A DNA stretch of 64,000 bases, taken from positions 124,001 to 188,000 of the forward strand of contig JASKOT010000023.1 of assembly GCA_032158125.1 (NCBI GenBank), given 5' to 3'. Source of the DNA: Papiliotrema nemorosa. Taxonomy: Eukaryota; Basidiomycota; Tremellomycetes; Tremellales; Rhynchogastremaceae. Shown here piece by piece: positions 21,432-49,858 of this stretch. Below the pieces are notes generated by a model. That model ran no database searches. It was not told the DNA's origin and saw only the letters and a list, made by a program, of their open reading frames with translations. Position 1 is the first letter of the stretch. Every line of letters begins with the position of its first letter. Both the position numbers and the translations under genes were made by a program.

Positions 21432-22865
21432 CTAGTTGCTCGAAAATTGACCAGTGGTTTTGAGCGCATTGTTTTCCTTTTGGAGCTTGGCAAGAACAAG
21501 GCTCATTTCTGCCAGCTTTTCCGCTTGGATCTCCGCGAGGTGTTCAAGGTCGCCCAAGTGGTTTGCGGCCTACTTGATGTCAGCTTCTCTGCACGTGTGA
21601 AGCAGTGTCCGAGAGCCCACCTCTTTGTTGGAGATCTTTGATCGAGCTCGGAAGGCTCTTTGAGCCAATCGATTCTGTAGTCTTCGTCGCTCTCGTCGGA
21701 AAGCCGGACCGCCAGCCATCAGTCGGTCCAAGTCTTGCAACTCTTTAATCTTTTGCTCCGCACTAACATTGGGACCCTCGGCGGCCATACCTGGGGTCCA
21801 GGTGTGCTTTCGTTTCTGCGCTCGTTTGCCATTCTTCCCCGAGTTGGCCAAGGCCGATTCGGAGGCTCGTCGTCCTCGAGATCTCTTTAAGAGGGGCTCC
21901 GAGTCACTAGGCATAGGCATGGGGGATGCCGAAGTGGAAACGGACTGAAGTGGAGACGGTGGGCATTCTAGCTGAGGGATGTTAGCGTAGATTCTGGGCT
22001 CAGAAGGGTGAACATACAGTAGAATCAACTTCGTTGACTGGTCCGTCGGTGACGCCGTCATGATGCATGCTTAAGTGACCGCTCAGGCAGCCGGGATTGA
22101 TTCCATCGAATGAGGCGTGATTAGGAGGGGTGATCGAAGAAGACGAGCTAGATGAGCCAGAAAGTCCGTAATGCAAACTCGGGTTGTATCCATAGGGATT
22201 GGCCATGGGATCGAATGACGAGCCCAAAGAATTCACGCCTGGAATAGTGAGTACTTGTGCGACCAAAGATGACATTTGAGCTGACCGTATGCAGGGTTCC
22301 ATCCTTGGCTGAATGACATCTGAGGGAATTGTTGGGAAGACTCCTGCGGGTTGTACATCGGTCGAGCGACATCAGAATAGCCGGCCGAAGGGGACAGATC
22401 AATCAGTTGACCGTAAGCAGAGTGATTGCCGAGATACTGAGTGTCTGTCGGTAATTTGGTGTGGGATAGATAGACTGAATTGTTTACATAAGGTGGCGGT
22501 CCTGGGAGATAATGCTCATTGTACTGCTGTCCATACTCGTCGGGGTTCTGGTACCCTTGGGGCGCCATGTCGGACGCTCCATATAGCTGAGTCATAAATG
22601 TATCGTCTTCGGTGTTGGACACTGGCGATCGCAACAATGAACCGACCGAGGAGACGGAAGAAGAACGAGCGGCCGGCTCCAAGCCCGGGTTGGTGTCCTG
22701 AGTGGGAGAGATGGGTGAGTGGGTCGTGTGTACGGGTTGTTTAACGCAGTCGGAAGGTCCAATAGAGAGCAAAGAGAGCATACGCCGGTGATGATCGGCT
22801 TGACAGTGAGCGTAGCTGCTATAGGAAGGACCGTGGGTGATGGTGTCCTGCTTTCCGGTTGTCAT
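21432..22865 (-). CDS. bZIP transcription factor
   Basis: Nuclear DNA-binding regulator. The N-terminal 300 or so residues are Ser/Pro/Tyr/Gln-rich and probably disordered, with a SSSSSSS run. A basic patch LLKRSRGRRASESAL and KRAQKRKHTW may be a nuclear signal. The bZIP basic region is RRRLQNRLAQRAFRARSKI, with the N-x(2)-AQRAF-x-R core of fungal Yap/Pap1-like and related factors. The leucine zipper is completed by a last exon (HLGDLEHLAEIQAEKLAEM, LVLAKLQKENNALK) after an intron, ending at TAG 21432-21434. The frame is open further upstream but has no ATG there, so 22865 is the first possible ATG. Target genes cannot be told. Confidence 0.82.
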
Positions 22866-24906
22866 GAAGCTACAATGCTCGGTGTTGGGAGGATTTGGCT
22901 CGGACAAGGAGAAAGCGCTGGTCGACTTTAAGGAAGGATCGGGATGGTGATTCTAGATGACCTCGGTTTTCTGCTGTTGGTGAATGTGAGGTGCAACGAT
23001 ATGGTCTGAGGGGGTATGAGGTTGGTCGAAAAGCAAGGAGCAAAGAGAAGGATGCGGCGGGTTATAACGAGCTCGGCACGAATGATGGGGGGCAAGTGGC
23101 GTAGCTGTGAGAAAAACGTTGTACTGGAATCGTCTCGATTTCTCAGGGTTCAGTCGTTACCCGTCTAGCTTCCGCGCACCTCTGCCACGACGCCCCTGGG
23201 GCAACACCTATGTCATTCTCAGGGTTTTGCTGGAATCCCCCGGCCCCCTATGTTCCCCCCTTGCTTCTCCCCATCCCCCCTCGCCCCCACCCATTGACGC
23301 TAACGCCTGCGTTTTTTTTTTTTACCTGTTTGGACAATTGGAGCGAATGCGCTCATGGTGGAGTCTTTGGGTCCTTTGCTGGAATCGACTTCATTTGACA
23401 GGACTCGACTCAAGTGCCTGATACTATGACGCCTCCCTCTCGCTGTTCCCTTTCATCCTCTCGGTCATCTGCTTCCGAGGTCAAGAACGAACCCCTCCGG
23501 CAACAAAACCCTTGGGCACGGCTTCGACTTGACCGAACAAGTCCCACCGAGCTCAAAAGGGCAACGACTGTGGGCTCCGGTCTGCTTGATAAGAAGGATA
23601 AGAATTGCGCAAATCCCCCTCATTATACGAGCAACTTGTACGGTTTTGCCATGTCTTTCTCTCTATTCTAGCAAAGCATTACAAGTCTCACACTGTCGTG
23701 GTGAGAACCGCTGACTTGAGAGTAGCTCGGGCAATGGCAAATGATGGGGGTGTCGTCGGTATTCGGCAATCAAGGATGAGGTTTCAGGGTAGGAAGATCA
23801 CCACCAATGACCAACACAAGCGTCGTAGGCGATCCATTGAGTCGTCTAGTTTGAGGCTTTTTTTGAAACGATTACATACTCGTACATCACGGTGTAAACC
23901 TCCCTCTCCAAAAAGCTGATTCGAGACTTTCGGTCGCTAAGTGATTCATCATGGTTCCAGTGGAAATTAGGGACCGCAACATGAACGGCAATCGCGTTCA
24001 ACGTACCTCGCGAGTGGATGAGCCCGCCATATAAGTTCAAGCACTCGCACAATCTGCTCTTGGGGAAAACGTCGGTCATAGGCACTAATTTGTGCAGGTG
24101 GATGACATAGACACCACCGTATCTTCAAAGCGAGTGATATCGCCAAGGAGAGACGCCTCAAGGTGGACATTATTCATAGTTGATCATGTATCGCCAAGAA
24201 GGTAGTCACCCCCCTTATGCCCTTATGGCGTAGGCGTACATACTATCCCGCAGTGGTAAGTGGGATGGCTGTTCCCAGACTAGACATCGCCCGCTCGTCC
24301 CCCGGGCTGGCTTGGGGAGTGAGCGGTACATGACAAGAACACGGATCCATAAAAGCCAAAGTGGAGCGAGCTTCCACTCGCGTTCTGGTAACCAAGGGGT
24401 AGTCACCACCCATGCAGCCTTCGTAACCATTATTATGAGCCAGTTTCAAGACCTCCCAGTCACTTGGTTTACGGTAGATGGGTTGGGCAAAGGTACTGAT
24501 CCACCCGCCTTTACACCAAATCGCTGCTGAGATGAGTCCACCGCGCGCGACGATCAGAGATCAAGCTTCTCGAAGATCACTGCCCGTCGAGCGACGATCA
24601 TTACGGCAGATCTCTGCTCTAAACCACAAGTCATCCCATTTCTCCTGGTCATTGCTTGGTCGCACCCGGCTGTCCTTTGGCCATTTTCATCATGTTACTT
24701 CTACATCCTCAAGTGCAGCTCGTCTTGCCTCCAAATGTGTGTCAGAGGTCGATTGCAGCGCTGCAGGGCATGAGAAATGGTGCTCACGTGATGTAGTCTC
24801 ATCTCGTCTCGGCCCGGCAAGTTCCCGGTAGACATCGTGTCGTCCATCTTGATGGCGATGTTGAATAGATTCGGAATCTCGAGGAGATTCATAGTACTAG
24901 TACAAC
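22866..24906. promoter_or_regulatory. 2-kb divergent region between two transcription-factor genes
   Basis: No supported gene. The left half has a strong pyrimidine bias on the plus strand, including a C-rich tract (23237-23293) and a T12 run (23312-23323). Open frames such as 23414-23671 lack motifs. Long leaders with upstream ORFs for the two regulators would explain the size; this is inference. Confidence 0.5.
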
Positions 24907-27015
24907 ATGGATGAAGAAAGAGCGCCTTCAGATGACGGCGGTTATCGTATGTTGTGCACGCGGTACCGAAAGCTGACCGCCAGGCGCATGTGTGAGTCGG
25001 CCAAGGGTGATCAAGCCTCATCTCATCAGGACACTTGTCGACGACTCAAAGTCCGATGTGTCAATCGAGCTCGACCTCCTTGCAAAAGATGCGAACATTT
25101 GGGAATACTCTGTACGAGCAATTCCATCGGACCAGTCAGGCGTCGTCCTGATCCAGCTAGGTAAGTCTTTCTCAGTATCCGATTCGTTCGCTGATATCGT
25201 CTCCACAGACGGCTGTCTACCGTGGAGGCAGAGATCAGAGGTGTGAACGGGAAGTTGCAGACCATCTTGTCGTCCTTGGACAAGATTGGCTCGAGTTCAG
25301 ACCGGATCACCGACAGAAATCCCATCACCCAAACATCCTTACCCAACATTGCGCCTGAACCACGGGTATCGTTCCTCAATCCATCAACGATCTCACCTAC
25401 TCGAATCGAGATCATCCACCCCATATCTGGCTCGACAACTGCCACGACATCTGGTGCACCAGCCGCGCAGAGCGAGGTGGAAGTGAGTCCCGCGACCGGT
25501 GGTCAAATGGACGAAGAACCAGTGTTGGCGTCCGCGGCGTATTTCCGGAGCTTATTGAGGATTCAGAACGAACGCAACGTAGAGAATGGAACATCGACCT
25601 CGGATCTCAGGCTGGAATGGTGGATGGGTACAGAGGATCTGTCGCTCCAAGAAGTAAACGCCATCGTATCCGACCCTGTTGCACTGGAGATATGCGATCT
25701 CAACACTGCTCAACATCTCTTCGATTTCTACTTTCAACACCTGCAAGCGTATATTCCGATATTTGACCCGACTGTAGATACCTGGTTGAATCTGCGGCAG
25801 CGGAGTCCGTTTGCCATCACGACCATCCTGTTCACCGCTGCCAAAGTGTCCAATGCTGAGGGCTGGTTGGTGAAGCGACTTCGGACTCAAGCATTACGAA
25901 TGGCCAAAACGACCTTGTTCTCACACGTAGCCGATTTGGAGACTGTCCAAGCGTTGATGATCTTGGCTTGCTGGGCTGAACCTTACTGGAGGATGATCCA
26001 TCACGCTATCTCCCTGGCCCTCGAACTCGAATTGTCCGATTGCTTACGGCAAATCCAACATCCTTCGCCGGATCAGGATCATAGACGGATAGCAGCGGGC
26101 GCAAGGGTATGGGTTGCTACGTGTAAACTCGCCTTGGAAGCAGCTACAAATCACTCTCGAATGTCATTCTTCAACGTGACATTGCTCGGTGACAATCTAT
26201 CACTTTTGCTCGACAGTCCTGCCGCATTACCATCCGACGCTCGACTGGTATCATGTTGCGAGTTTCAAATTATCCGCCGACCAGTCGATACCCTCCTTCG
26301 TCAAGCTTCGCCATCCGATCCTCTCCCCTTGAAGGAGATACGTAAATGGTATACCGATGCCGAGCTTTGGCAAAGTAAATGGTCGAGATGGTATCTCCGC
26401 AGAGGGTACACAAAGGACCATTTCTACGTTACTGAACTTGAGACTCAACGATGTTATTCGACAGTCTTTTTCACTTCGTGCTTGTTACGATCTACCAAAG
26501 TGTCTAGAGACGTGGACGAGTTAGATCCGGAACAACAATACTGGTTGCACAGGGGTCTGACGGCTGGAGAAATGGTGATTGCCAGAGTGGCAGAGGGCAA
26601 GGAGATTGAACATCTCCCATATGCCAATCATTACGCCCACGTGTGTCTAGCGGTGACGCTCCAAGTGGTCATTCGACTGGTCAAACTCATGCCGTACGCT
26701 GTGGACCTTCGACAGACAGCTACGAGGATGCAGAAACTGGTAGAGTTTTTGGCTCAATTACCAGGTGTAGGATTTGGGGAAAGCTTGTTCGGTATATTGG
26801 AGCGCGCAAGAGAAGAACACGTCTTGCCCCAACGGTCCAGGGTGGCAAGTCCGAAGAATGGCGTCCAAGAGGCTCTCCCGGTCAATCCGAGCTTTGTCGA
26901 AGGCCTGTTGGCGGATTGGGATATAGCGCAAGGATGGGATATAAACTCTCTACTCGGACTTTTGCCGGATGGACAGGCTGTTCCGCCGATAGAAGACCAT
27001 ACATACTCCATGTGA
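24907..27015 (+). CDS. Zn2Cys6 fungal-type transcription factor with an 8-nt exon in the zinc cluster
   Basis: Nuclear regulator with a binuclear zinc cluster and the fungal-specific middle domain. The zinc cluster is complete only if four exons are joined: 24907-24946, 24984-24991 (8 nt, GCGCATGT), 25030-25160 and 25209-27015. This yields RACDTCRRLKVRC, seven residues, then CKRCEHLGILC, an exact C-x2-C-x6-C-x7-C-x2-C-x6-C. A linker (STVEAEIRGVNGKLQTILSS) may be a coiled-coil dimerisation segment. The middle domain shows LFDFYFQHLQAYIPIFDP and VQALMILACWAEPYW, typical of the family. Total 1986 coding bases, 661 residues. The introns flanking the tiny exon are 37 and 38 nt. Targets are unknown. 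Confidence 0.88.
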
Positions 27016-27154
27016 GCACATTCGAGCCGATTTGGAAAAGGTCTTCGATCAAGTCGCCAGAGATGCATTCCTCTGTTCTATGTAGGTTGCGCTTGATTGT
27101 CGTGAAACTAGTGATACAGGACGATTGGCACGGCACAGACTCTCCAGTCTCCTC

Positions 27155-29780
27155 TCACATTGGCTCCTCTTCTTCGACCTCGTCTTCCAGCTCGTCCTCT
27201 TCCAACTCATCCTCCTCATCCTCCCATCCATCTGCATGTCCATCGTGACCCATATGAGGAGGGGGATGAACTCTCGTTTCACCTTGTACGGGACCGCCAA
27301 CTCGTTCGTACGTTGGCCCATACCCATGAGGTGGCATGCCCGGATGAGGTGAGCCATACCTGCCTGGCGGTGAAGTCCTGTGATACGCGGGACCGAGATT
27401 TGTATCAGGTATAGGATGTCGATGAGATCGCTCGATGGGCCTCGACACCGCGGATCCTCCACCCTGAGGTCCGCTCGATCCTCTGGATGCCTCGCTGGTA
27501 CCCGGCGTGCCGGGTCCGTTTGAACCACCGGGCATAGAATGAACCTTTGCGTGCCGCTTCAAGTTTGATTGAACGGAGAATCTTCTCCGACAGGTAGGTT
27601 CCTCGCAAATGAACGGTCTCTCACCGGTGTCTGATATCAGCGCCACCCCCGGTATCCCGACTAGGTCACTCACGAGAATAGGTATGTATCCTCAATGAAC
27701 TTGGTCGAGAAAAGGTCTTTGCGCAAAATGCACAACTGTACTTTGGGCCTACACCAGGTCCGCCTGAGATGACCGATCCGCCCAGATTCCCTCCCTCGAC
27801 TTCGTCATGATCTCGTTCTGCTTCCACCCGCCTCGCCGCACTTTCTGCTAAGACTTCCATACCGCGCATCGCATTTTGGCCAGACATCTCGACATCGTCC
27901 TCTCGCAAGCCCTGAGCCGATGAACGTTTCTTGCCTCGAAGTGAAGGAGGAGTAAGACTTTCACCGTCTGAGTTGAGCGATACAACCGGGGCAGAAGTAG
28001 GGATGACATTGTCGGCTGAGACTCGTCTGATTGGCCAACCGGTTATCAATGGCGCAGTTGACATAGGTGGAACCGGTTCTGAAGCGGAAGGCTTTTCGAG
28101 CGGAGCAGAGACCTTGCCGTGCATGGGAGGACCCGAGTTGAAATGACCTTGAGCTATGGCGACGTCGTCTCCTGATTTGGCCATGATAAGCTCCGCCAAA
28201 GAAGACCTCCTCATGCCGGACTTTTCACGGCGTTCTGGCGATGGGGGGCGGGTCGCTGCCTGCCTTCGCATGGCATCTGTTTCGTTTTGCAGCCTGTTGT
28301 GGGATAAAAGGGGCGGAAGAGAGGGTCTGGGAGACGACTCGCGGGACATGGCACTTGGTGTGGGGATCGAAGACATTCTTCGGTCAGGCACCGACGCTGG
28401 GGGGCGCATGTCTGTGTGCGAAAGAGGAGAACGTCTATCTTGCCTCTCGCTAGCTGTCAAGTCGGCAAAAGATTGCGCGAGCTGACCACCAATGAGAGAT
28501 GCGCTGCGTGATGGTACAGGAGCTATCTTTCGCTGCTCAAAGGGGAATTCGCCGGGCGGATGTTCGAGGAAAGGCGTGAGAGGAGAGCTAAAGCCGGATC
28601 CGTTGGAGATGGATTGCCTCGACATGGAGGCGGATGCAGATTGTGGTGGATGGAGGAGCGATCTCAAAGCAGTACCTGACGCTGAGCCAGGTGTGGACAA
28701 TGGCGAATTTAGCGTTGGGAACGAAGCGTTCCGACTTTGAGCCTGCCAGCGCAATCTGGCGGATTCTTCGGCATCTCTGTATGCGGGCTGATCGGACCGG
28801 CGACGTTTATCGGCGTGTTCATCCACAAATGGGTGGACGGTAGGGTATGAGTTGGCTCGATGGTTTGCGGGATGTCGAGGTGAAGAAGCTTCGCCGGAAG
28901 ATGAAGAGCTCCGATCGAAGTCTGGAGCCCACCAGCCGCCCAGGTGAGGAAGCTGAAAGACGTCGGATGTCGATGATCGATGCGATGCCAGTGAAGAGTA
29001 GCGAGATGTGCGTGCTGTCGAGGGAGAGGAAGAAGGCGAGTTGGGAACGAGCGAAGGAAGAGAAGGGGAAGCGTAGAGTGAGATGGAGGAAGATGGTGTA
29101 GGAGGTTGCGGGTGTTCTAAAATGTCAACCTAGCTCCCTTGTACCCATTGGTAGCACTCACCCCCTGCAACGCCAAACAACGCTTGAATGCCAGGTAAAC
29201 TGACGTGTTCTGCAATCTCCTTGCCGTCTTCTTCCGCAACTCTACGTAAAGGATGTCGATGACCCAATTCTCCATATCCCTCATCGTCGAGCTCTTCTTC
29301 CCTTCCCATGGGATCGAACCGACTCTGCCTACGACTGGCAGCGAGAGGTAATGGGCTGGGTTTTGTAGGGACGTGCTGGTGGTCGATGGGGGGGTAGCCA
29401 TGTTGCAATCTTGGTGAACGGCTGGAGGATGGGGTGGAAGAGGCAGAAGAGGTCTCGGGTGGACCGACCTTCCACGAAGGTGGATGAGACATTATTGGCC
29501 TGCTGGGTCGAGGCGGACTTGCACCTGTGACTGGGGCAGTCATGGGCAAAGCGAATCGCGCAGTGTTACGCGGTGTGCGTGGTGACTTGAAGCGCAAAGG
29601 ACCAGGACTTTCGCCAGAATGTCCAGCTGTGGAGGTGAAATTTGGCTGTGGGTACTGGGTGGGTGAATCCGGTGATACCATATTTTCATGGTCGCCAGTT
29701 AGAAGAGGCAATGCAGAGGTGAAAGCGAGAGGTGGGGATGGGAGAATGGTATGAGGGGAAGGAGGGTATTGGAAAGCCAT
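27155..29780 (-). CDS. C2H2 zinc-finger transcription factor, two fingers
   Basis: Nuclear regulator of roughly 840 residues. Two long exons encode Ser/Pro/Arg-rich disordered sequence. A third exon completes two tandem fingers near the C-terminus: YSCAFCAKTFSRPSSLRIH (finger 1, its last histidine position across the intron appears as YSDTGERPF, so the usual second His is replaced or shifted) and FICEEPTCRRRFSVQSNLKR with HAKVH (finger 2). The linker TGERPF is canonical. The end is strongly acidic (WEDEEDELEEDELEDEVEEE), which could act as an activation or histone-binding patch. Two introns. ATG at 29780 is preceded by more than 3 kb without genes. Confidence 0.85.
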
Positions 29781-35949: not shown

Positions 35950-38798
35950 ATGCCTCCCAAATTCGATCTAAATTCTCCGGAAGTCAAAGAGCTCGTGGAG
36001 CTATTCACCAAAGTCGGCCTCACCTATAAAGCATCCACCGACCTTGTTCGTCAACCCAAATCTGCCACACCGTTCAAAGCGCTCGTAGAAGATTTTCAGC
36101 TAGCCAACGAATCGCACGACGAGAAGACTGCGAGCAATCTTGTCAAGCTCAGTGCTGGCTGTGCGAAGCTTGAACAGGGCGAGAAGGGCTATGCGGTTCA
36201 AAAAATACTGAACGGGGATCTGAAGACGGCTGATCAAGTAGCGGGTGAGCCAGCCAGATTTCTACGGGACCCGGCTCATGATCACAGCCGCAGTCAAATA
36301 CCTGGAGAAGAATCCCGCTGGAACACCCGTCGACGAAGTAGCATTCAATGAAGCGTGTGGAGTTGGTATGTTGGCCTATCCCAAAATGTTAGGCCTCGAC
36401 CTGATGGGCAGGAATCGTGATCACGCTTGCGGAACTGCCGGAACTCATAAGGGCATACATTTCATCCCTTCCTTCAGCGCCTGAGAGCTGGTCAAGCCTA
36501 GGTCCATTGCTCGGTGGGATCAAGAGCAGTGCTTCAAACCTGAAGTATGTTTGATCCATCTGTTCCGATACTTAGCCTGACGCATAGGTGGGCGAATGCT
36601 GTGGAGCTCAAGTCTAGTCTGGAAGCATACTTTACCAGCCTTTTCGGTACCAAAGAGGAAGCCGCAGCCAAGGCACGCGCCGAGGCTGCTTCGACTCCCA
36701 AACCCAAACCGGTCAGAGCCAAACCTGCCTCTTCAGCCATTGCAAGTTCTAGTACCGCCCCTGCTATCCCTACCAACATCTTTCAAGAGGGATTCTTGTC
36801 GGAATTCCACAAACCGGGAGAGAATCCTCAGATTGATCCCAAGTTGAAGGATCAACATCTAGAGTGGACAAAGGGTCAGGTTTACACGCGATTCCCTCCC
36901 GAGCCTAATGGGTACCTGCACATCGGTGAGTCGGTCTGTCTCTGATTCGAGCTGCGGACTGAAGAAATCAGGTCACGTTAAGGCTATCATGATTGATTTT
37001 GGTTACGCGAAATACCATGGCGGAAGGACATACTTGAGGTGAGTTCTGCGAGCGTTGGCCCGCCCAAAACTAACTCGTCCAGATACGACGATACCAACCC
37101 GGAAAAGGAAGAGGGCAGATTCTTCCAGTCCATCTTGGAGACTGTGCGGTGGCTTGGATTTGAGCCGTGGAAAATTACTTATTCATCCGACAACTTTGAC
37201 AAGCTGTACGAGCTCGCGGTGGAATTGATCAAACGAGGAAGGGGATATGTCTGCACATGCGATGGTGCGTCGCGTGGTACATGGAGAGCTCATGCCTAGC
37301 GGAGAAGATCAAGGAAGACCGGGGAGGAGGTAAAGGGAACCCTGTTCCGTGTCCGCATCGAGATAGACCGGTGGAGGAGTCGCTGGTCGAGTTTGAAAAG
37401 ATGAAGAATGGAGACTACCCTGAAAAGACGGCCTGTTTGCGGATGAAGATGGATCTCACCAGTGGCAACCCCTACATGTGGGACACTATCGCCTACCGGG
37501 TCAAGCTGGCTCCCCACCACCGGACAGGCGACAAATGGAGTGAGTGTCGAGTTGGCGGATGGTATCCGAGCTGACATGCAGAAATGTACCCCACATACGA
37601 TTTCACCCATTGTCTCTGTGATTCTTTCGAAAACATCTCTCACTCTCTCTGCACCACGGAATTCATCCCCGCTCGAGAATCGTACGAGTGGTTGTGCGAT
37701 GCTTTGACGGTGTACAAGCCTCGACAGTACGAGTTTGCTCGACTCAATCTGCAAGGCACCTTCTTGTCCAAGCGAAAAATTGCGCGATTGGTGGAAAAGG
37801 GCCACGTCAAGGATTGGGATGACCCACGACTGTACACCATAATCGCCCTGCGTCGACGTGGTATACCGCCTGGAGCACTATTGGCGTTTGTTAGTGAGCT
37901 CGGAGTGACCACTCAGGTGTCGACTACGGAGATCAAGAAGTTTGACAGTGTTATTCGAGGATACCTGGAGGATTCGGCACCGAGGTTGATGATGGTGCTC
38001 AACCCTGTCAAGCTGGTCATTACCAACGTTGCCGATGATTACCGTGTCCCCGTCGAGGTCCCGCTCCACCCCAAGGTTCCAGCTATGGGCACAATTACCA
38101 CGTCGTTCACCAAAGAAGTATATATTGACGCGGAAGATTTCCGAGAGGTCGATTCGGCGGATTACTTTAGGTTGGCGCCTGGAAAATCGGTCGGTCTGTT
38201 TAAAGCGCCCTTCCCCGTCACTTGCACTGGGTTCACCAAAGACCCCACCACTGGGGCTATCACCGAGGTTCAGTGCAAGCTGGAAGACGACGGGTCAGCC
38301 AAGAAGCCCAAAGCGTACATCCAATGGGTCAATGCGCCCGACGCAGTACACATTGACGAGGTCCGGTACTTCCACCCATTGTTCAAGACTGAACCTCCTC
38401 CAGCAGACTTCGAAGGTGACATCGATCCCAATTCCCTCACAGTGTACAAGAGCGCAGTCATTGAGCCTGCTTTCTATTCCGTCGCCAAGAAAGCAATGGG
38501 AGATGCTAAGAAGGATTCGGAGGAGAGAACGAAGAAGGCCAAGGCGGAGATGAGCAAGGATGAGGGATCCAAGGTCGGAGTTGAACATGCGGAAGATGAA
38601 CCAGTCGTAGAGGCTTCTGGATTGGTCGGACCGGAGAATGTTAGGTTCCAGGGTATGCGATTGGCCTACTTTACGCTGGATAGGGAGAGCAAGGTCAAGT
38701 GTCTGGATGAGGAGGGTGTGCAAGGGAAACAAGAGGGAGACAAGATCATTTTGAACAGGATCGTCAGTTTGAAGGAGGATACAGGGAAGAACGCGTAG
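35950..38798 (+). CDS. GLN4: cytosolic glutaminyl-tRNA synthetase
   Basis: Class I synthetase that charges tRNA-Gln. The ATG at 35950 starts the eukaryotic N-terminal helical domain ([20 protein letters not shown] ... [20 protein letters not shown] ... [16 protein letters not shown]). A Pro/Ala/Lys linker follows. The catalytic core has the HIGH motif as [13 protein letters not shown], then [46 protein letters not shown], and the KMSKR equivalent FLSKRKI. The anticodon-binding beta-barrel gives [15 protein letters not shown] near the end. A charged insert ([20 protein letters not shown]) interrupts the barrel. At least eight introns, one inside the HIGH motif. About 830 residues, normal for fungi. 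Confidence 0.95.
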
Positions 38799-42172: not shown

Positions 42173-44826
42173 CTACAATGTCCACTCTATCCCTCTAGCT
42201 TCTCCTGCCTGTCGACTCTTGCCAGCGTTGGAGAGTGTATCCATGCCTACACCATTTCCGACTACAATGACCTCCAACATGGTGTCACCTGGCACACCGT
42301 CTACCTTGGCGCGAATCTTACCGCCCGAAATCGACAGTGTGGCTCTAAGCGTTTCGCCCTTTCCTCGGCAAATTGTGATGATATCGCCTTGCGTGCCGCT
42401 ACCGACGAGAATGGTCAGACCGCTGCTGCTCCAGCTTTGACTTATTCGGTGGTTTCCGTGGGCTATGAGCAGCGCATGACCAGGTCGAAGCAGAACAGGC
42501 AATGTGAGGTATCCGTGAGTCTCGGTGTGCCATCCGGTGGACTTCGACGAGCCGTCAAGAATGTTGACCCAATCACCGCCGGCTTCCGGTACAAAGTACT
42601 CTACAGTGTCTGTGTCGAAGACTGGTGCAACAAGAAGCTTGTCGCCAAACATGTATTGCGTGTCAAGGTTCCAGCAAGTGGGGTCATTCGCAAACTCCAA
42701 GAACATGGCACGCATCAGGGGTGTACCCTTGTCGGCGGCCTCCTGTGATAGATTCAAGTAATAAGGCTCGAGTCGATGCTTGAGCTTGGTGTATTTACTG
42801 AGCACCTGACAAGCTTCTTGCCCAAACAACCAAGGCACCCGGTAAGATCCCGAACCGTGAAGGCGGGAATGTGACGACAGTAGACCGAACGGGACCCATC
42901 GTTTATACACATCGGCTCCCGGAGTGACCATAGAGTGACCTCCAGAAACTCCCTCCGCTTTGAAGCCTCCTATATCGTGCGCCCAGTAAGCGTATCCGGA
43001 GAGCGTGAGGGAAAGTCCACCTCGAAGTGATTCGGCCATTCCGGTGAATTCCGAATCGCAATCTCCTCCCCAGTGTACGGGGAGTCGCTGACCGCCAACC
43101 GTCCCAGATCGCGCAAACAGACAGGCTTGATCTCTTCCTTTGACTCGTGTCAGGACATCCTGGACCGCTTTGTTGTACAGAAACGAGCTGAAATTTAGTG
43201 ATAGGCGATCATACCGGGGTGGACTCACTACTGGTTGCGCATCGCGACGGGATCAGAACCTTCAAAATACTTGACATCGTGCGTCGGGATCTTCTCCCCA
43301 AAATCAGTCTTGAAGCTGTCCACTCCGTCGATCACCAATTGCTCCAGGTAGTCCTGCCACCAAGCAACAGCCTTCGGGTTGGTCATGTCGACGTAGGCCA
43401 TACCCGCTTGCCAATCGTCACATTGGAAGGTGGTCCCGTTAAGTCGTTGCAAGAAATACCCCTTTGCATCCCCTTCTTCGAATATGCGGGATTCTTGCGC
43501 GACGTATGGGTTGATCCACACGCAGACTTTGATCCCTCGCTGATGGATCCGCTCCAGGAAACCTTTTGGGTCGGGGAAATTGATTGGGTCCCATCGGAAA
43601 CTACACCACTCGTGTGGAGGTGACCTGTACTTCAGCCAAGACCCGCGAAGACCTCGTACAACTCACCAGAAACAGTCAAAGTGCCAGACCGACAAGGGAA
43701 TGTCCTCCTTCTCCATCCGGTCGATTTGTGACATGACAGTTTTCTCGTCGTACTGAGTGAGGAAAGACGTAGACAGCCATAAGCCATATGACCAGTCTGG
43801 AGGAATGGGTGGTCGACCCGTCATGGCCGTGTATCGTTCCAAGATCTGCTTGGGAGAAGGACCGGCAATGATGTTGAATCGTATCCTTTCTCCCGCGATG
43901 GTAGTTTGCACTTTGGTCATTCTGTCGGACTGTACCTCAACCGAGAGAGATTCCGTATGGTCGTAGTAGACACCGTAGCCTTTGTTAGTCATGAAGAATG
44001 GAACGTTCTTGTAGCCTGGCTCATCAGCAAGGATCACATGGCCCCGAACAATGAGCGTACCGACACGGGAGCTGGTTCCGCCATCACCATTGGTGACCTC
44101 CACTTGCTGGCCATTCTTGATAAACGGACCAAACCTCTCCCCAAGTCCATGCACCTTTTCGCCCACACCCAGAGAGGTCGATACCGACATGAAGCTCTTT
44201 CGGGACTTGTCTGGTTGTCGATGGTACGGATCCTGTCCCCCCGTCACGCTATACTCCACTTCAAACACATCAGGTCGACAATTCTCGTCCAGGATCCATT
44301 GGAGGGATTCCTGGCCAATGGTAGTCAGCACCTTGCCTGAGGTTGAGTCGAAGAAAGTCGCCTTGAAAGAGGATGGTCGAGTATCAAGGGTCACGCCAAT
44401 ATTTCCAGAAGTGAGCGATGCCCCGACTACATGTCCTTCCTCCACGTCGAGCTCAACGGTCGACGAGGGAGAAGGTGGTGGTCCATCCGGGAACAGTTCG
44501 GGCCGGACCGTCTTGTATGCCGATTTCCCTCGAAAATGATACACGTCAAAGGAGACGACTCCTTCCATGGGTGAAGTGACATTGAGGGTGATGGTAGGTG
44601 GACCGAGGGTACCGCTAGGGTTGACTATCGCTTTGGTATGACATAGAGCTCGAATGAAGGACCCTTCACCGGTCGACGAGAGGGCTTTTCTTTCGGACGA
44701 GGGGACTTTGAGAGGGTGCCAGAATTGAGAATTTGGAGAGATCGAGGTTTCCAGCTTTCCGACTTCTGCTGCAGACTTGATAGTCACGCCTGACTTGCGT
44801 TGCCATACTCCATCTGTGAATCTCAT
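42173..44826 (-). CDS. GH31 alpha-xylosidase-like glycoside hydrolase
   Basis: Retaining glycosidase that likely removes alpha-xylose from xyloglucan-type oligosaccharides. The start is set at the ATG 44826 because MRFTDGVWQRKSGV matches the usual start of YicI-type alpha-xylosidases; the frame is open further upstream only through non-ATG codons. The N-terminal beta domain (VHGLGERFGPFIKNGQ) is followed by the catalytic barrel: PDWSYGLWLSTSF, IPLSVWHFDCFW, GIKVCVWINPYVAQ, and the nucleophile in VDSFKTDFGE. The acid/base aspartate is in VHWGGDCDSEF. HDIGGF and LSSHSRLHGSGSYRVPW are also family marks. No signal peptide is seen, so it may be cytosolic, acting after uptake. Two introns. About 850 residues, normal length. 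It stands in tandem with the GH36-like gene. Confidence 0.9.
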
Positions 44827-45373
44827 CCTGGAAGTGAGGTGTCGGGTCAAGAGTAGAGCGATACTCGCAGCACTCAAGTCAAGCTATCCTTATACCTAGC
44901 CAGCCTCCACCTCGTTCTGCAGCTCGTCATATGCGAGACATACCATAGTGGAGGCGGAGAAGGGGGTCGCTGCATTGACGGTTGAAACGCGCTGAACGGC
45001 GGATTGACGGTGTGTCGGAAACGGGGGCCGTCGATGCCGCTCTCGGCGAGTCGGCGTAGCTGTCTCCGATCCCACTTGCTTCCGCAGGTGGACATGATGT
45101 GGCGGGTAGTCATGGCCAGAGCCAGTCAAATCGCGTTCAGTCCGTCGCGGCTCACCAACGATGGCAGTAGTGGTATCAGGCGTGGTCGGGCTAGACCGCG
45201 GATTGGCAGGTCAATTCTGGCTCGGTGATAACCACTTGTATTCTTCTTGTCTCATGCCTTGGAGGATCACGTACAGTAGGTAGCCTGCATGACTGCATGA
45301 CCTTCTGTGACATTGCAATGCTTACTTAGTGGATCGAGTCTGTTGAGGGATGTGATGATACAACCGTCTACTC
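44827..45373. other. intergenic, GH36-like gene 3' end and GH31 promoter
   Basis: Short open frames on both strands without motifs. No regulatory element is obvious. Confidence 0.45.
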
Positions 45374-47518
45374 TCATGCACCGAAAAATACGATTGCAGC
45401 AGACACCTCGGTCGACTGGAGCGAGATTATTGCCCGACCTTGCTCATCGAACCTGACCTCTACCTGAGACTCATCCCCACAGACCACCTTGTACCGCTTG
45501 CACACCGACTCTGCTCGAGTGATCAGACTACCTCTTGCAGGTAGGATCCCCACATCGTGAGCGCCGCCCCAGAACTTTTCCAACTTGCGTCCGGTAAACA
45601 GCACCACGAGCCCCTCTCCAGAGGCGGGATCCACCTTGTCGTAAGTCTCGATCATCCCTCCAGGTTGCCCGACCCTATATATCCCCACTCGAGTCGAAGC
45701 CTCCCGAACCTTTCTGTAGAGCCCCAAAGCGTAATGGAGCTTTTCCCGTCCCGCGGTCGAGACACCCGCGATATCGCCCCAGATCCCTCCATGGCCCAAG
45801 ACAAGCGAGGCAATGCTGAGTAGCTGGTTATTTGCAGGAGCATCGTCCGGGAGGTAGTGAACCAGGAACAACGTACTTGGAATCCACCGATCATACTCCA
45901 ACCCGGTCCGACATACCCATCCTCGAGCCGGGCCAGGGTGGAAGAACAGGTTGATATTATCATATGTCGTCCCAAACTTCATGCTTTCCCTTCGATGAGC
46001 GATATGTGGGGTGTAGGTACTACGAGCATCGTTCGGAATGTCGTACTCCTGATAGTACGGCCCATTGTTGACCGAAAAGTACTTGCCAACCGACAGAAAC
46101 GCAAGACCGACACATCGAGCCGATTCGGTAACATCAAAATCGACAATCGCATTCGGTATCTCCTCCTGGAGCTTCTCGACAATTCGAGCCATATATATAG
46201 GTTGCAAGAAAGCATATCGATCCGCTCTTTCAGCAGGAGTCATACTCTCATTCCCGTGAGAGTGTCGATGATCGTCACAGCCATATTGTTCGATCGCATC
46301 CCATTTGAAATATGTCACCCCATACTCCTTGGCGCATCGGACGAGCTCTTCCGCAAAGTCATCGGCGTACGAGCTGACCAGGCAACATTCCGCCGATTCT
46401 TCCGTCTCCCATACTTCGCGAGTGGCCAGCGCTTCACCTCGCCACGTCATTCGATTCTGCTCATTCTTCTTGTATAGCGTAGACGAGAGAGCCGCAGTGG
46501 TAGGACCGAACCATAGACCCAGCTCAATCTTATGCGAGTCGAGTTTCGCCTTGATGGGTCCAAGGCCATTCGGGAACCGCTCTCGTGATGGTCTCCAATC
46601 CCCAGTATACTCGAACCATCCCACGTCCAGCACATACGTCTCGATCCCCATCGCTGCAGCAGCCTCAATCTCCTCCAAGATTTGTTTCTCGTTCATTGCC
46701 GTGAGAAACTGCCCGTGTTGCCATGAATGTACTCGTTCTTGGTTGTTCCATGTGTTGTAGAACACTTTTGGACTTCGCGAGGCGGGATGAGGGCAAAACC
46801 GTTCAAGGATGAAAGACCGGTAGACGTGTCTGAGATCATGCATGGTCCCAGGGAGGGAGACAAGCTGCATCCAGACAGTCTCGAAAGGCGTAGAGAGGGA
46901 GTGATTGTTATCGTAAGACCCTTTAAGACCGATGATCGAAACTCGATGTTCTTCCAACTGGAACGATAGGTAGGCGTCGGGCCATTGCGAACCGTGTTCG
47001 TACGCCAGCAGAGTCTGAATGTTTCCCTCGGAAGTTGAATTCGACCAAGTGAGGATGGGACCCATCGCTAGAGTCCTGTTTGTAAAGTCGTGCGGGAGTA
47101 GCTCGACCTCGCTCGGCATGTAACCGTGGTACAGCGAGCTATAGTCTGAGAGTCGGATCTCGGTCGCACTCTGCCCTTCAATTTCCAACCCAGCTAGATC
47201 CAGCACATCTTTGCCCTCTGGACGAGTAAGACGCCCTTGGCCAGAAACGATGTATCTGAAGCGAACGACGGGCGAGTCGGACAGCCGGATAATCAGACTG
47301 AGCTTGAGATTCGCATTCGAGCACTTGCCAGTGTACCTCTTCTCCAAGATGGTCTCGTTGATCTTCGTTTCGGACTCGAGCGCGAGCTTGCCGTAAAGAA
47401 CAGTGACCTGGTTGTCCAGGCAGATCCGAGGTGGGCTGACCGAGACGGAATGATCATCCCCCCCAGTGTATGTCCACAGGCAGTCGGGTGTCCCAGAGAT
47501 TTCGATGCGAGGTTGCAT
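45374..47518 (-). CDS. GH36-like alpha-galactosidase family protein, intronless
   Basis: Likely hydrolase of terminal alpha-galactosides. The start is the ATG at 47518 (MQPRIEISGTPDCLW); the frame is open upstream to a GTG only. An N-terminal beta-sandwich (YHGYMPSEVELLPHDFTNRT) precedes a barrel with FYNTWNNQ, ETYVLDVGWFEYTGDW, GLGPIKAKLDSHKIELGLWF and TYFKWDAIEQYG, whose KWD holds the expected nucleophile. The usual acid/base motif C-x-S-GGGR-x-D is not visible; the matching place reads DFDVTESARCVGLAFLSVG, so substrate or mechanism may differ from classical GH36. No signal peptide. 714 residues from one exon, rare in this intron-rich window. It shares a 454-bp promoter region with the sugar transporter. 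Confidence 0.82.
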   Translation of the reverse strand: MQPRIEISGTPDCLWTYTGGDDHSVSVSPPRICLDNQVTVLYGKLALESETKINETILEKRYTGKCSNANLKLSLIIRLSDSPVVRFRYIVSGQGRLTRPEGKDVLDLAGLEIEGQSATEIRLSDYSSLYHGYMPSEVELLPHDFTNRTLAMGPILTWSNSTSEGNIQTLLAYEHGSQWPDAYLSFQLEEHRVSIIGLKGSYDNNHSLSTPFETVWMQLVSLPGTMHDLRHVYRSFILERFCPHPASRSPKVFYNTWNNQERVHSWQHGQFLTAMNEKQILEEIEAAAAMGIETYVLDVGWFEYTGDWRPSRERFPNGLGPIKAKLDSHKIELGLWFGPTTAALSSTLYKKNEQNRMTWRGEALATREVWETEESAECCLVSSYADDFAEELVRCAKEYGVTYFKWDAIEQYGCDDHRHSHGNESMTPAERADRYAFLQPIYMARIVEKLQEEIPNAIVDFDVTESARCVGLAFLSVGKYFSVNNGPYYQEYDIPNDARSTYTPHIAHRRESMKFGTTYDNINLFFHPGPARGWVCRTGLEYDRWIPSTLFLVHYLPDDAPANNQLLSIASLVLGHGGIWGDIAGVSTAGREKLHYALGLYRKVREASTRVGIYRVGQPGGMIETYDKVDPASGEGLVVLFTGRKLEKFWGGAHDVGILPARGSLITRAESVCKRYKVVCGDESQVEVRFDEQGRAIISLQSTEVSAAIVFFGA

Positions 47519-47972
47519 CGCTTCGAGAATACCGCGAAGAGGTTGAAGAGAATCATCCTCACCTTGTCGCACTCTTCACCTTGTCAAAGGACGGACAATT
47601 CTCCTTGCGTATCGATCGTCGATTTCCAAAGTACAAACCGGACCGCCAGAAACCCGAACGACTAACCGTCCGAAAACGGACACGGCACGCCCCGACGCCG
47701 ACTTTATTTCCCTCTTCGGGGAAAACTATTCGGTGAAAGCTCAATGCGTCCGTTCCCGTGATGTCCACCGTCGTAGCTTGCCAGATCCTTTGAACCCGGA
47801 TTGTTAACGCCTGAGGCGGACCGTCGATGTCGTGGTCACCTGCACAAGTGTTCTGAGTGTGGCGACAGTCTACATAGCCGGGGTCCCGGCATGGGATTCT
47901 CCGACTGAGCACTATATATACGGTCGCCCCGCGTTGAAAACAGGTCAATCACCCCATTCCACACACGTCAAG
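47519..47972. promoter_or_regulatory. divergent promoter of GH36-like gene and sugar transporter
   Basis: It contains GTCCG-AAAA-CGGAC at 47668-47681, a perfect inverted CCG-N4-CGG pair of the kind bound by Zn2Cys6 dimers, and the palindrome GCCGGG-GT-CCCGGC at 47877-47890. A TATA-like ACTATATATA at 47911-47920 lies about 55 bp before the transporter ATG. Co-regulation of the cluster is inferred from this layout. Confidence 0.6.
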
Positions 47973-49858
47973 ATGACTAATCAGGTTGAGAAAGAAGTCC
48001 CAGTTTCGGTCACCGGACCTCCGGCCATGGCCAACGAGCGAGTCTGGCGAGCTCACGAAGCTGCCGAGATTGAAAAATCAATGAAATTCACCGCCGTCGT
48101 CCGCAAATATTGGAAAGCAGTCGCTTGGTCCATGTGCCTCTCCACCGCTCTCATCATGGAGGGTTACGATGTTGGAATCGTGAGTCGAGCCGAAAAACCG
48201 AGTCTCCCTCTCATGTCAGATCAACGCATTCTGGGGAAACGCCGAATTCCTCGGTCGGTTTGGTAAAGAGACAGCCGGCGGGGTCAAGTATATCCCTGCG
48301 AATTGGCAGGCAGCAATCAACAATGCCGGATTAGTCGGTGAAATCGTCGGCTTGGCTATCACTGGTTATACCCAAGACAAAATCGGCGCCAAACGAACAT
48401 ACCTCTTGGGAATGGTACTCATGGCGGCGGCTATTTTCGTCCCAGTCTTTGCTACCAGTCTTGAGATGTTGTTTGCCGGTGAAATCCTTTGTGGGATACC
48501 TTGGGGGATGTTTCGTCAGTCTCCATTGAGAAGTGGTCTTGAGCGTAACTTACGTCCGCAGAAACCCTGACCACCGCTTACGCTGTGGAAATCACTCCAC
48601 TTGCGATCCGAGGTTATCTCGCTTCCTACGTTAACATGTGTTGGGGTATCGGTCTCACTCTCGGTGCGGGTGTTGTTCGAGGCACTCTTGCGATCGATAG
48701 CCAATGGTCATGGCGATTGCCTTACGCCTTGCAGGTGAATCTACCCCCGCCCTCTCGCGCGTGACCCTATCTGACAAGCAGTGGGTTTGGCCTGTCCCTC
48801 TTTTCCTTGCAGTCTGCTTCGCCCCGGAGAGTGGGTCCCTTCACACTATGAGTACTGTGCACGAAAGCTCACCCCCAGGTCCATGGTGGCTCATCCGCAA
48901 AGGTCGAAAAGAAGAGGCGAGAAAATCTCTTCTACGTCTCGCTGCCAACAACTCTTGGACCGAACAATCGCTGGAAGATTACCTTGCTCTGATCGAATAC
49001 ACCAACAACCTGGAGAAACAAGAAGTCGCAGGTGCTACTATCACTGATTGTTTCAAAAAGTCCAACCTACGTCGGACCGAAATTGCCTGTATGGTCTGGT
49101 CGGTGCAATACACTTGCGGTCAACCCATTGTCAACTACACCACCCAGTTCCTTCAAAATGCCGGTCTTGATGAAGACGCCGCTTTCGACGTCAACATTGC
49201 CACCACTGCAATGATCGTGTTCGGTACAATCATTGGATGGCTCATCATGGCCGTTGCAGGTCGTCGACCAATCTATATCTGGGGCTGTGGTCTTATGTCG
49301 ATCAATCTCGGCGTCATTGGTGTACTAGGGTGCATCAAACAGACCTCCAATGTCGCTTGGGGAGTTGGCGCTCTGCTCATTGTCCTCACGTTGATATTCT
49401 CCTGCACAGTAGGACCGGCTTGTTACTCGATTGTCGCAGAGCTTCCTTCGACTCGTGTACGACAACTCACAGTCATTCTGGCTCGTGCAACTTACCTCGT
49501 CTCGGGTGTCGTCATCCAACAGCTCAGCCCTCGGATGCTGGGAGTGGCAGACTGGAACTGGGGAGCCAAAGCGGGATTCTTCTATCTCGGCACCAACGCC
49601 CTATCCTGCGCGTATTGTTACTTCCGACTCCCCGAAAGTAAGGGAAGGACATATGGTCAGCTCGACGTGCTATTCATGCGAGGTGTGTCGGCTCGAAAGT
49701 TTGCCAGTACCAACGTATCCGGTGAGTCCTGGTCGTCAGATGACGGAGAGAGTGGCGGCTGACGGATGTTTGCAGAATTTCAAGAAGCCGAACATGTTCC
49801 TGGTGCAATATTGGATGTGGATGAAAAGCGGGAGGAAGTCAGGGTCGAACACGTATAG
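47973..49858 (+). CDS. MFS sugar transporter, alpha-glucoside/oligosaccharide permease-like
   Basis: Proton-coupled sugar importer of the plasma membrane. The cytosolic N-terminus (MTNQVEKEVPVSVTGP) precedes TM1 LIMEGYDVGIINAFW, then loop 2-3 GYTQDKIGAKRTYLLGM, AVEITPLAIRGYLASYVNMC (loop 4-5), WSWRLPYALQWVWP, and PESPWWLIRKGRKEEA, restored across an intron (GAGA|gtgggt...cccag|GT). PES-PWWL-x-RKGR is typical of fungal maltose/alpha-glucoside permeases. The second half gives SVQYTCGQPIVNYTTQFL, VAGRRPIYIWG and RLPESKGRTYGQLDVLF. A last small exon ends at TAG 49856-49858. About six exons; 545 residues or so. Its place next to GH31 and GH36 genes suggests it brings in their substrate. Confidence 0.9.

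What the first reader, a model, noticed from the sequence alone, without database searches (positions are those of the whole stretch)
24947..25029. 8-nt exon that encodes the first zinc-binding cysteine of a Zn2Cys6 factor
Exon 24984-24991 (GCGCATGT) lies between introns of 37 and 38 nt. Including it gives RACDTCRRLKVRC and an exact C-x2-C-x6-C-x7-C-x2-C-x6-C cluster. Skipping it shifts the frame (8 nt) and removes the DNA-binding domain. Inclusion could thus be an on/off switch for the factor.
Basis: partly seen in the sequence, partly recalled or inferred. Interest (0 to 1): 0.8.

Follow-up and report, generated by a model that had tools for sequence, protein, structure and literature searches.

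The report
8-nt microexon in a zinc-cluster factor
In this fungal gene an exon only eight bases long supplies the first zinc-holding cysteine of a DNA-binding domain; what looks like the same tiny exon turns up in related genes of the genome, so it is probably a real, inherited piece of gene structure, while its use as an on/off switch is untested.

Summary
Exon 24984-24991 (GCGCATGT) lies between GT-AG introns of 37 and 38 nt. Including it gives ...YRACDTCRRLKVRC... and an exact C-x2-C-x6-C-x7-C-x2-C-x6-C cluster. The spliced protein matches Pfam Zn_clus from position 1; the skipped form is 53 aa with no domain. Random genomic stretches put upstream instead never reached the observed score (0 of 4000).

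New here: the same basidiomycete genome holds further Zn2Cys6 genes with an 8-nt exon NN-GCATGT at the same place and phase: L032 and L035 clearly, L031 probably. Their introns mostly no longer align, so the exon looks old and kept. The relative L054 has these residues in one exon.

Best reading: a normally included, inherited microexon, spliced by intron definition, needed to build the zinc cluster. The switch is possible but untested. A glucose-regulated 20-nt microexon in the zinc cluster of Trichoderma Xlr2 is published (PMC11121469), and fungal microexons down to 1 nt are known (PMC12940212): a new member of a known kind. Decisive: RNA-seq or RT-PCR junction counts.

The parts
24907..24946 (+). 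Exon 1: start codon, 13 codons in all, plus one base (MDEERAPSDDGGY + C)
   Evidence: in-frame TAG 24898-24900 just upstream
24947..24983 (+). Intron 1, 37 nt, GTATGT...CGCCAG, branch-like CTGAC at 24973-24977
24984..24991 (+). 8-nt microexon GCGCATGT (end of an Arg codon, Ala, Cys1)
   Evidence: same exon form in L032, L035, probably L031
24992..25029 (+). Intron 2, 38 nt, GTGAGT...CATCAG
25030..25160 (+). Exon 3: remaining five cysteines of the Zn2Cys6 cluster and linker
   Evidence: Zn_clus
25161..25208 (+). Intron 3, 48 nt, GTAAGT...CCACAG, branch-like CTGAT
25209..27015 (+). Exon 4: linker, middle region and C-terminus, stop
   Evidence: 31% identity to a paralog on contig C7
25723..26088 (+). 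Weak Fungal_trans (PF04082) match, residues 232-353
   Evidence: 21.1 bits, below the curated 23

Best explanation
The 8-nt piece is a genuine, inherited coding microexon of a Zn2Cys6 transcription-factor gene in a basidiomycete. Two short introns (37 and 38 nt) are each recognised as a unit (intron definition), so the exon between them need not be long. Removing both joins exon 1 (phase 1) to GC-GCA-TGT and then to GAC-ACT-TGT, and completes the zinc cluster. I infer that inclusion is normal (constitutive or nearly so) and that skipping or retention is a splicing error giving a short dead protein or unstable mRNA. Shown: sequence, phases, motif, products of each form, recurrence of the exon form in the genome. 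Inferred: that splicing happens this way in cells, its efficiency, intron definition, and that Cys1 is a bridging zinc ligand (recalled from GAL4).
For: Exact cluster and 661-aa open model. Zn_clus from profile position 1 at 28.2 bits when spliced, against position 4 onward at 25.2 bits when both introns are kept. 0 of 4000 random-upstream controls reach the window's score. The best-scoring solution in L032 and L035 is also an 8-nt exon NN-GCATGT in the same phase; L031 has the same exon form as its second solution. In 11 of 12 comparisons the four genes' introns align no better than many shuffles, yet exon place, phase and GCATGT persist. The related gene L054 encodes RACDFC in one exon, so the joined residues are the right kind. 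In the window, L032 and L035 the frame leading into the exon is open for only 5, 6 and 5 codons counting Ala-Cys, without Met, so reading through intron 1 is not possible there. The window's introns have consensus-like donors, and introns 1 and 3 have clear branch-like motifs.
Against: No RNA evidence. No orthologue in another species was found (one search scored only the 7992 candidates sharing most words), so conservation rests on paralogs of one genome. In L031 a one-intron model scores higher (5.4 against 5.0) with an 80-codon open frame, though that frame holds no Met. Splice scores are hand-set; with them 4 of 4000 and 1 of 4000 random controls reached the scores of L032 and L035. Intron 2 of the window has only weak branch-like sites, and intron 1 of L031 has none. 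The tree of 56 zinc clusters does not resolve whether the four genes share one origin.
Confidence: 0.74

Rival explanations
1. Regulated switch: inclusion of the 8-nt exon varies with conditions and decides whether a DNA-binding factor is made.
For: Skipping or single-intron retention destroys the domain. A skipped intron would be 83 nt, within the length inferred for other introns here (92 nt in L047). Precedent: Xlr2 20-nt microexon, glucose dependent.
Against: No transcript data either way. The exon length is not a multiple of three, so skipping makes no alternative working protein. Recurrence in several genes is expected from inheritance alone. In Xlr2 no reads joined exons 1 and 3, so even there the off form was not simple skipping.
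Confidence: 0.13
2. Intron retention control: the two introns are retained together under some conditions, giving an in-frame 686-aa protein with a 25-aa insert and a displaced first cysteine.
For: Both introns together are 75 nt and stop-free with the exon, so the frame is kept. More than 11.4% of C. neoformans introns show an intron/exon transcription ratio above 0.05 (passage of PMC3990503).
Against: Not kept in relatives: 88 nt in L031 is out of frame, and L032 and L035 carry stops in frame. A stop-free stretch of 25 codons is not rare by chance.
Confidence: 0.06
3. The microexon is not used; Cys1 comes from another upstream exon, or the gene makes no complete zinc cluster.
For: The solver found one one-intron solution that restores Cys1, through a GC donor (introns up to 140 nt tried).
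Against: That solution scores 2.7 against 5.9 and is not in the frame of the ATG at 24907. Same exon form in other genes.
Confidence: 0.05

Closest known systems
Xlr2 of Trichoderma virens (PMC11121469; abstract, passages and section 2.5 seen)
   Same: Microexon inside the Zn2Cys6 zinc cluster; without it the protein lacks the DNA-binding domain
   Different: 20 nt, encodes PCRRCE with two cysteines, ascomycete, glucose-dependent inclusion shown by RNA-seq and RT-PCR; here 8 nt, one cysteine, basidiomycete, no RNA data, several genes of one genome
CYP621A 1-nt exon of Fusarium and the 8-nt exon of Phanerochaete CYP5141A1 (PMC12940212, passages seen)
   Same: Very small exon inside a conserved motif; first recognised by motif and phase
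   Different: Enzymes, not transcription factors; splicing of the 1-nt exon confirmed by reads
Microexons of the Phanerochaete P450 genes (PMC1184071, passages seen)
   Same: Basidiomycete, frequent small introns, exons encoding 2-10 aa spread over a gene family
   Different: P450 family
9-nt microexon of plant AP2 genes (PMC8831610, passages seen)
   Same: Microexon in the DNA-binding domain of a transcription-factor family, mostly missed in annotation
   Different: Plants, 9 nt (frame kept), other domain

Membership tests
Fungal Zn2Cys6 (Zn_clus, PF00172) factor | Six cysteines in the C-x2-C-x6-C ... C-x2-C-x6-C pattern (general form recalled) and a profile score over cut-off | tested here: met
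   (28.2 bits, cut-off 21), with the 8-nt exon included
Fungal Zn2Cys6 factor with middle homology region | Fungal_trans PF04082 over cut-off | tested here: inconclusive
   21.1 bits, cut-off 23, E 0.00018
Coding microexon | Very short internal exon with plausible GT-AG introns on both sides, needed for the frame and motif | tested here: met
Coding microexon | Seen spliced into mRNA | not testable with these tools
   no transcript data held
Conserved microexon family | Same place and phase in related genes | tested here: met
   L032 and L035 clear, L031 probable; paralogs of one genome only
Xlr2-type switch microexon | Encodes zinc-cluster cysteine(s) | tested here: met
Xlr2-type switch microexon | Condition-dependent inclusion with two isoforms | not testable with these tools
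   needs RNA from several conditions

The most novel reading that the evidence does not exclude
The shared 8-nt exon is a common control point: one splicing factor, perhaps reading the constant GCAUGU inside the exon, sets inclusion in several Zn2Cys6 genes at once and so switches a set of transcription factors together.
Probability: 0.07. Interest if true: 0.8.

Novelty: new member of a known kind. Interest (0 to 1): 0.42.

Why it matters
Gene finders tend to miss exons this small, so such factors would be annotated without their DNA-binding domain; the only match in the predicted-protein collection is this gene's own 502-aa C-terminal piece. The recurrence of one 8-nt exon form in several zinc-cluster genes gives a natural series for asking how splicing handles two introns of 33-51 nt separated by eight bases, and whether inclusion is ever regulated.

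Tried and rejected
Homologue searches with the spliced protein gave only the window's own ORF and, for residues 1-100, none of 110 candidates at E 10, so conservation between species could not be tested. A tree of 56 zinc clusters kept 34 columns and did not resolve the group. GCATGT is 4 of 4 in the microexon genes (L031 included) against 6 of 31 one-frame genes with Ala-Cys there; this is post hoc and few genes, so only a hint. Rfam over 23000-28000 gave nothing at gathering score. Cryptococcus papers PMC8022950, PMC10470540 and PMC3990503 hold the word 'microexon' once each, as a read-mapper setting. The in-frame dual retention looked interesting but is not kept in relatives.

Full report
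What was checked. The gene on the + strand reads exon 1 24907-24946, intron 37 nt, exon 2 24984-24991 (GCGCATGT), intron 38 nt, exon 3 25030-25160, intron 48 nt, exon 4 25209-27015; 1986 nt, 661 aa without an internal stop. Pfam Zn_clus matches residues 14-48 from profile position 1 at 28.2 bits (cut-off 21); Fungal_trans is weak, 21.1 bits below its cut-off of 23. The nearest solved structures by sequence are Ppr1, Lac9 and Gal4, with weak E-values of 0.006, 0.019 and 0.046.

Alternative products. Skipping the exon gives 53 aa without any Pfam match at E 1; retaining intron 1 gives 28 aa; intron 2, 84 aa; both, a 686-aa frame with 25 extra residues before D-T-C; all three introns, 85 aa; intron 3 alone, 60 aa. 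In GAL4 the first cysteine is one of two that bridge both zinc atoms (recalled), which would make this exon essential for the fold.

Is it chance? I replaced the DNA upstream of exon 3 (all but the last 20 bases) by random stretches of fetched loci, 4000 times for each of four genes, and sought microexons of 12 nt or less that restore Cys1. Any solution: 191 (window), 201 (L031), 216 (L032) and 192 (L035) of 4000. A score at least as high as observed: 0, 0, 4 and 1 of 4000. A score of 4.8 or more with exon length 8: 0, 0, 0 and 1 of 4000. The score weights are mine, set by hand from general splice-site knowledge.

The same exon form elsewhere in the genome. The window lies in a 19.2-Mb, 68-contig genome. 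Zn_clus has 70 matched places at E 0.001 and 124 at E 1. I had sequence for 90 of the 124 (70 including the window, 15, 5 short pieces). In 54 of the 85 entries held a C-x2-C-x6-C lies in one frame at the match start; the 54 include L078, where it is the second half of a cluster, and L083, with a stop before it. A splice solver was run on 18 split places: the 8-nt exon is the best solution in the window, L032 and L035, and the second in L031; 11 others (L033, L036, L037, L039-L045, L047) are best explained by one intron; L028, L034 and L046 gave no solution. The remaining places (L071-L090 and entries split elsewhere) I only read by eye and saw no such exon; that reading is not exhaustive, and L088 and L083 stayed unresolved.

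The four exons are GCGCATGT, ATGCATGT (L031), AAGCATGT (L032) and GAGCATGT (L035), giving R-A-C, N-A-C, Q-A-C and R-A-C, entering in phase 1 and leaving in phase 0 after Cys1, with introns 37/38, 37/51, 46/47 and 36/33 nt. In the window, L032 and L035 the frame leading into the exon is open for only 5, 6 and 5 codons, so a longer exon is excluded; in L031 an 80-codon open frame without Met runs upstream and the one-intron model scores slightly higher, 5.4 against 5.0. I count L031 as probable only.

Age. Of 12 intron comparisons among the four genes, in 11 the score is reached by 17 to 200 of 200 shuffles; in one (L031-L032, intron 2) by 3 of 200. The six related zinc clusters share 34-51% identity with the window's. 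So these are not recent copies, yet the exon's place, phase and six of eight bases are kept. L033 and L036 have an intron one base further on and no intron before Cys1 in the best solution; L054, the best match to exon 4 outside the window (31% identity over query residues 26-284), has Cys1 and Cys2 in one exon. Loss or gain of the upstream intron in the group is therefore likely; the tree could not order it.

Mechanism. Under intron definition splicing efficiency depends on the length of the intron and not of the exon (review PMC8624252, passages). That would explain how an 8-nt exon can be included without exon signals. I infer stepwise removal of the two introns. Nothing here measures efficiency or regulation.

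What is known. Xlr2 of Trichoderma virens has a 20-nt microexon encoding two zinc-cluster cysteines, included without glucose (PMC11121469: abstract, passages and section 2.5). A 1-nt exon is supported by reads in Fusarium CYP621A, and an 8-nt exon is mentioned for Phanerochaete (PMC12940212, passages). Phanerochaete P450 genes carry many (PMC1184071, passages). Plant AP2 genes share a 9-nt exon in the DNA-binding domain (PMC8831610, passages). Searches: 'microexon + fungi' (61 papers, 20 listed), 'microexon + Cryptococcus' (10), 'micro-exon + basidiomycete' (2), 'microexon + intron definition + pombe' (2), 'Zn2Cys6 + microexon' (0), 'microexon + zinc cluster' (3), and three mixed searches with 20, 24 and 32 papers of which 12 each were listed. 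In these listings I saw no title or abstract start reporting an 8-nt zinc-cluster exon; only open-licence papers are held, so this is weak evidence of absence.

Organism. A glutaminyl-tRNA synthetase exon in the window (37575-38795) is 56-60% identical to the named Agaricomycetes in the list and up to 90% to unnamed proteins (best 120 of 990 listed). I call it a basidiomycete; Tremellomycetes is a guess from recall.

Verdict. Observation confirmed; switch untested; ordinary in kind, but a neat and recurrent case.

Noticed in passing
window 21573-22070 (-): bZIP-like stretch (RRRLQNRLAQRAFRARSK), weak Pfam bZIP_1 match at 17.4 bits, below cut-off 27.6.
   Followed up: partly
window 27158-29129 (-): C2H2 zinc-finger gene whose two fingers lie in neighbouring open frames (each about 21 bits, below cut-off 25.2); with the bZIP-like and Zn2Cys6 genes this makes three regulator-like genes side by side.
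   Followed up: partly
window 42176-49759: GH31 glycosidase exons, a Melibiase (alpha-galactosidase) exon and a sugar transporter close together, a possible sugar-use cluster about 15 kb from the Zn2Cys6 gene.
   Followed up: no
L036, about G000:C19:24250 (-): Likely GC-AG intron (GCAAGT...CCAG, 47 nt) directly after the Cys1 codon plus one base of another Zn2Cys6 gene.
   Followed up: no
L033 and L036: The intron after Cys1 sits one base further 3' than in the microexon genes, as if the intron had slid by one base.
   Followed up: no
L083, G000:C37:86646-86783: Zinc cluster reading CDSCRTRKIKC with an in-frame TAA directly before Cys1 and no AG there; unresolved.
   Followed up: no
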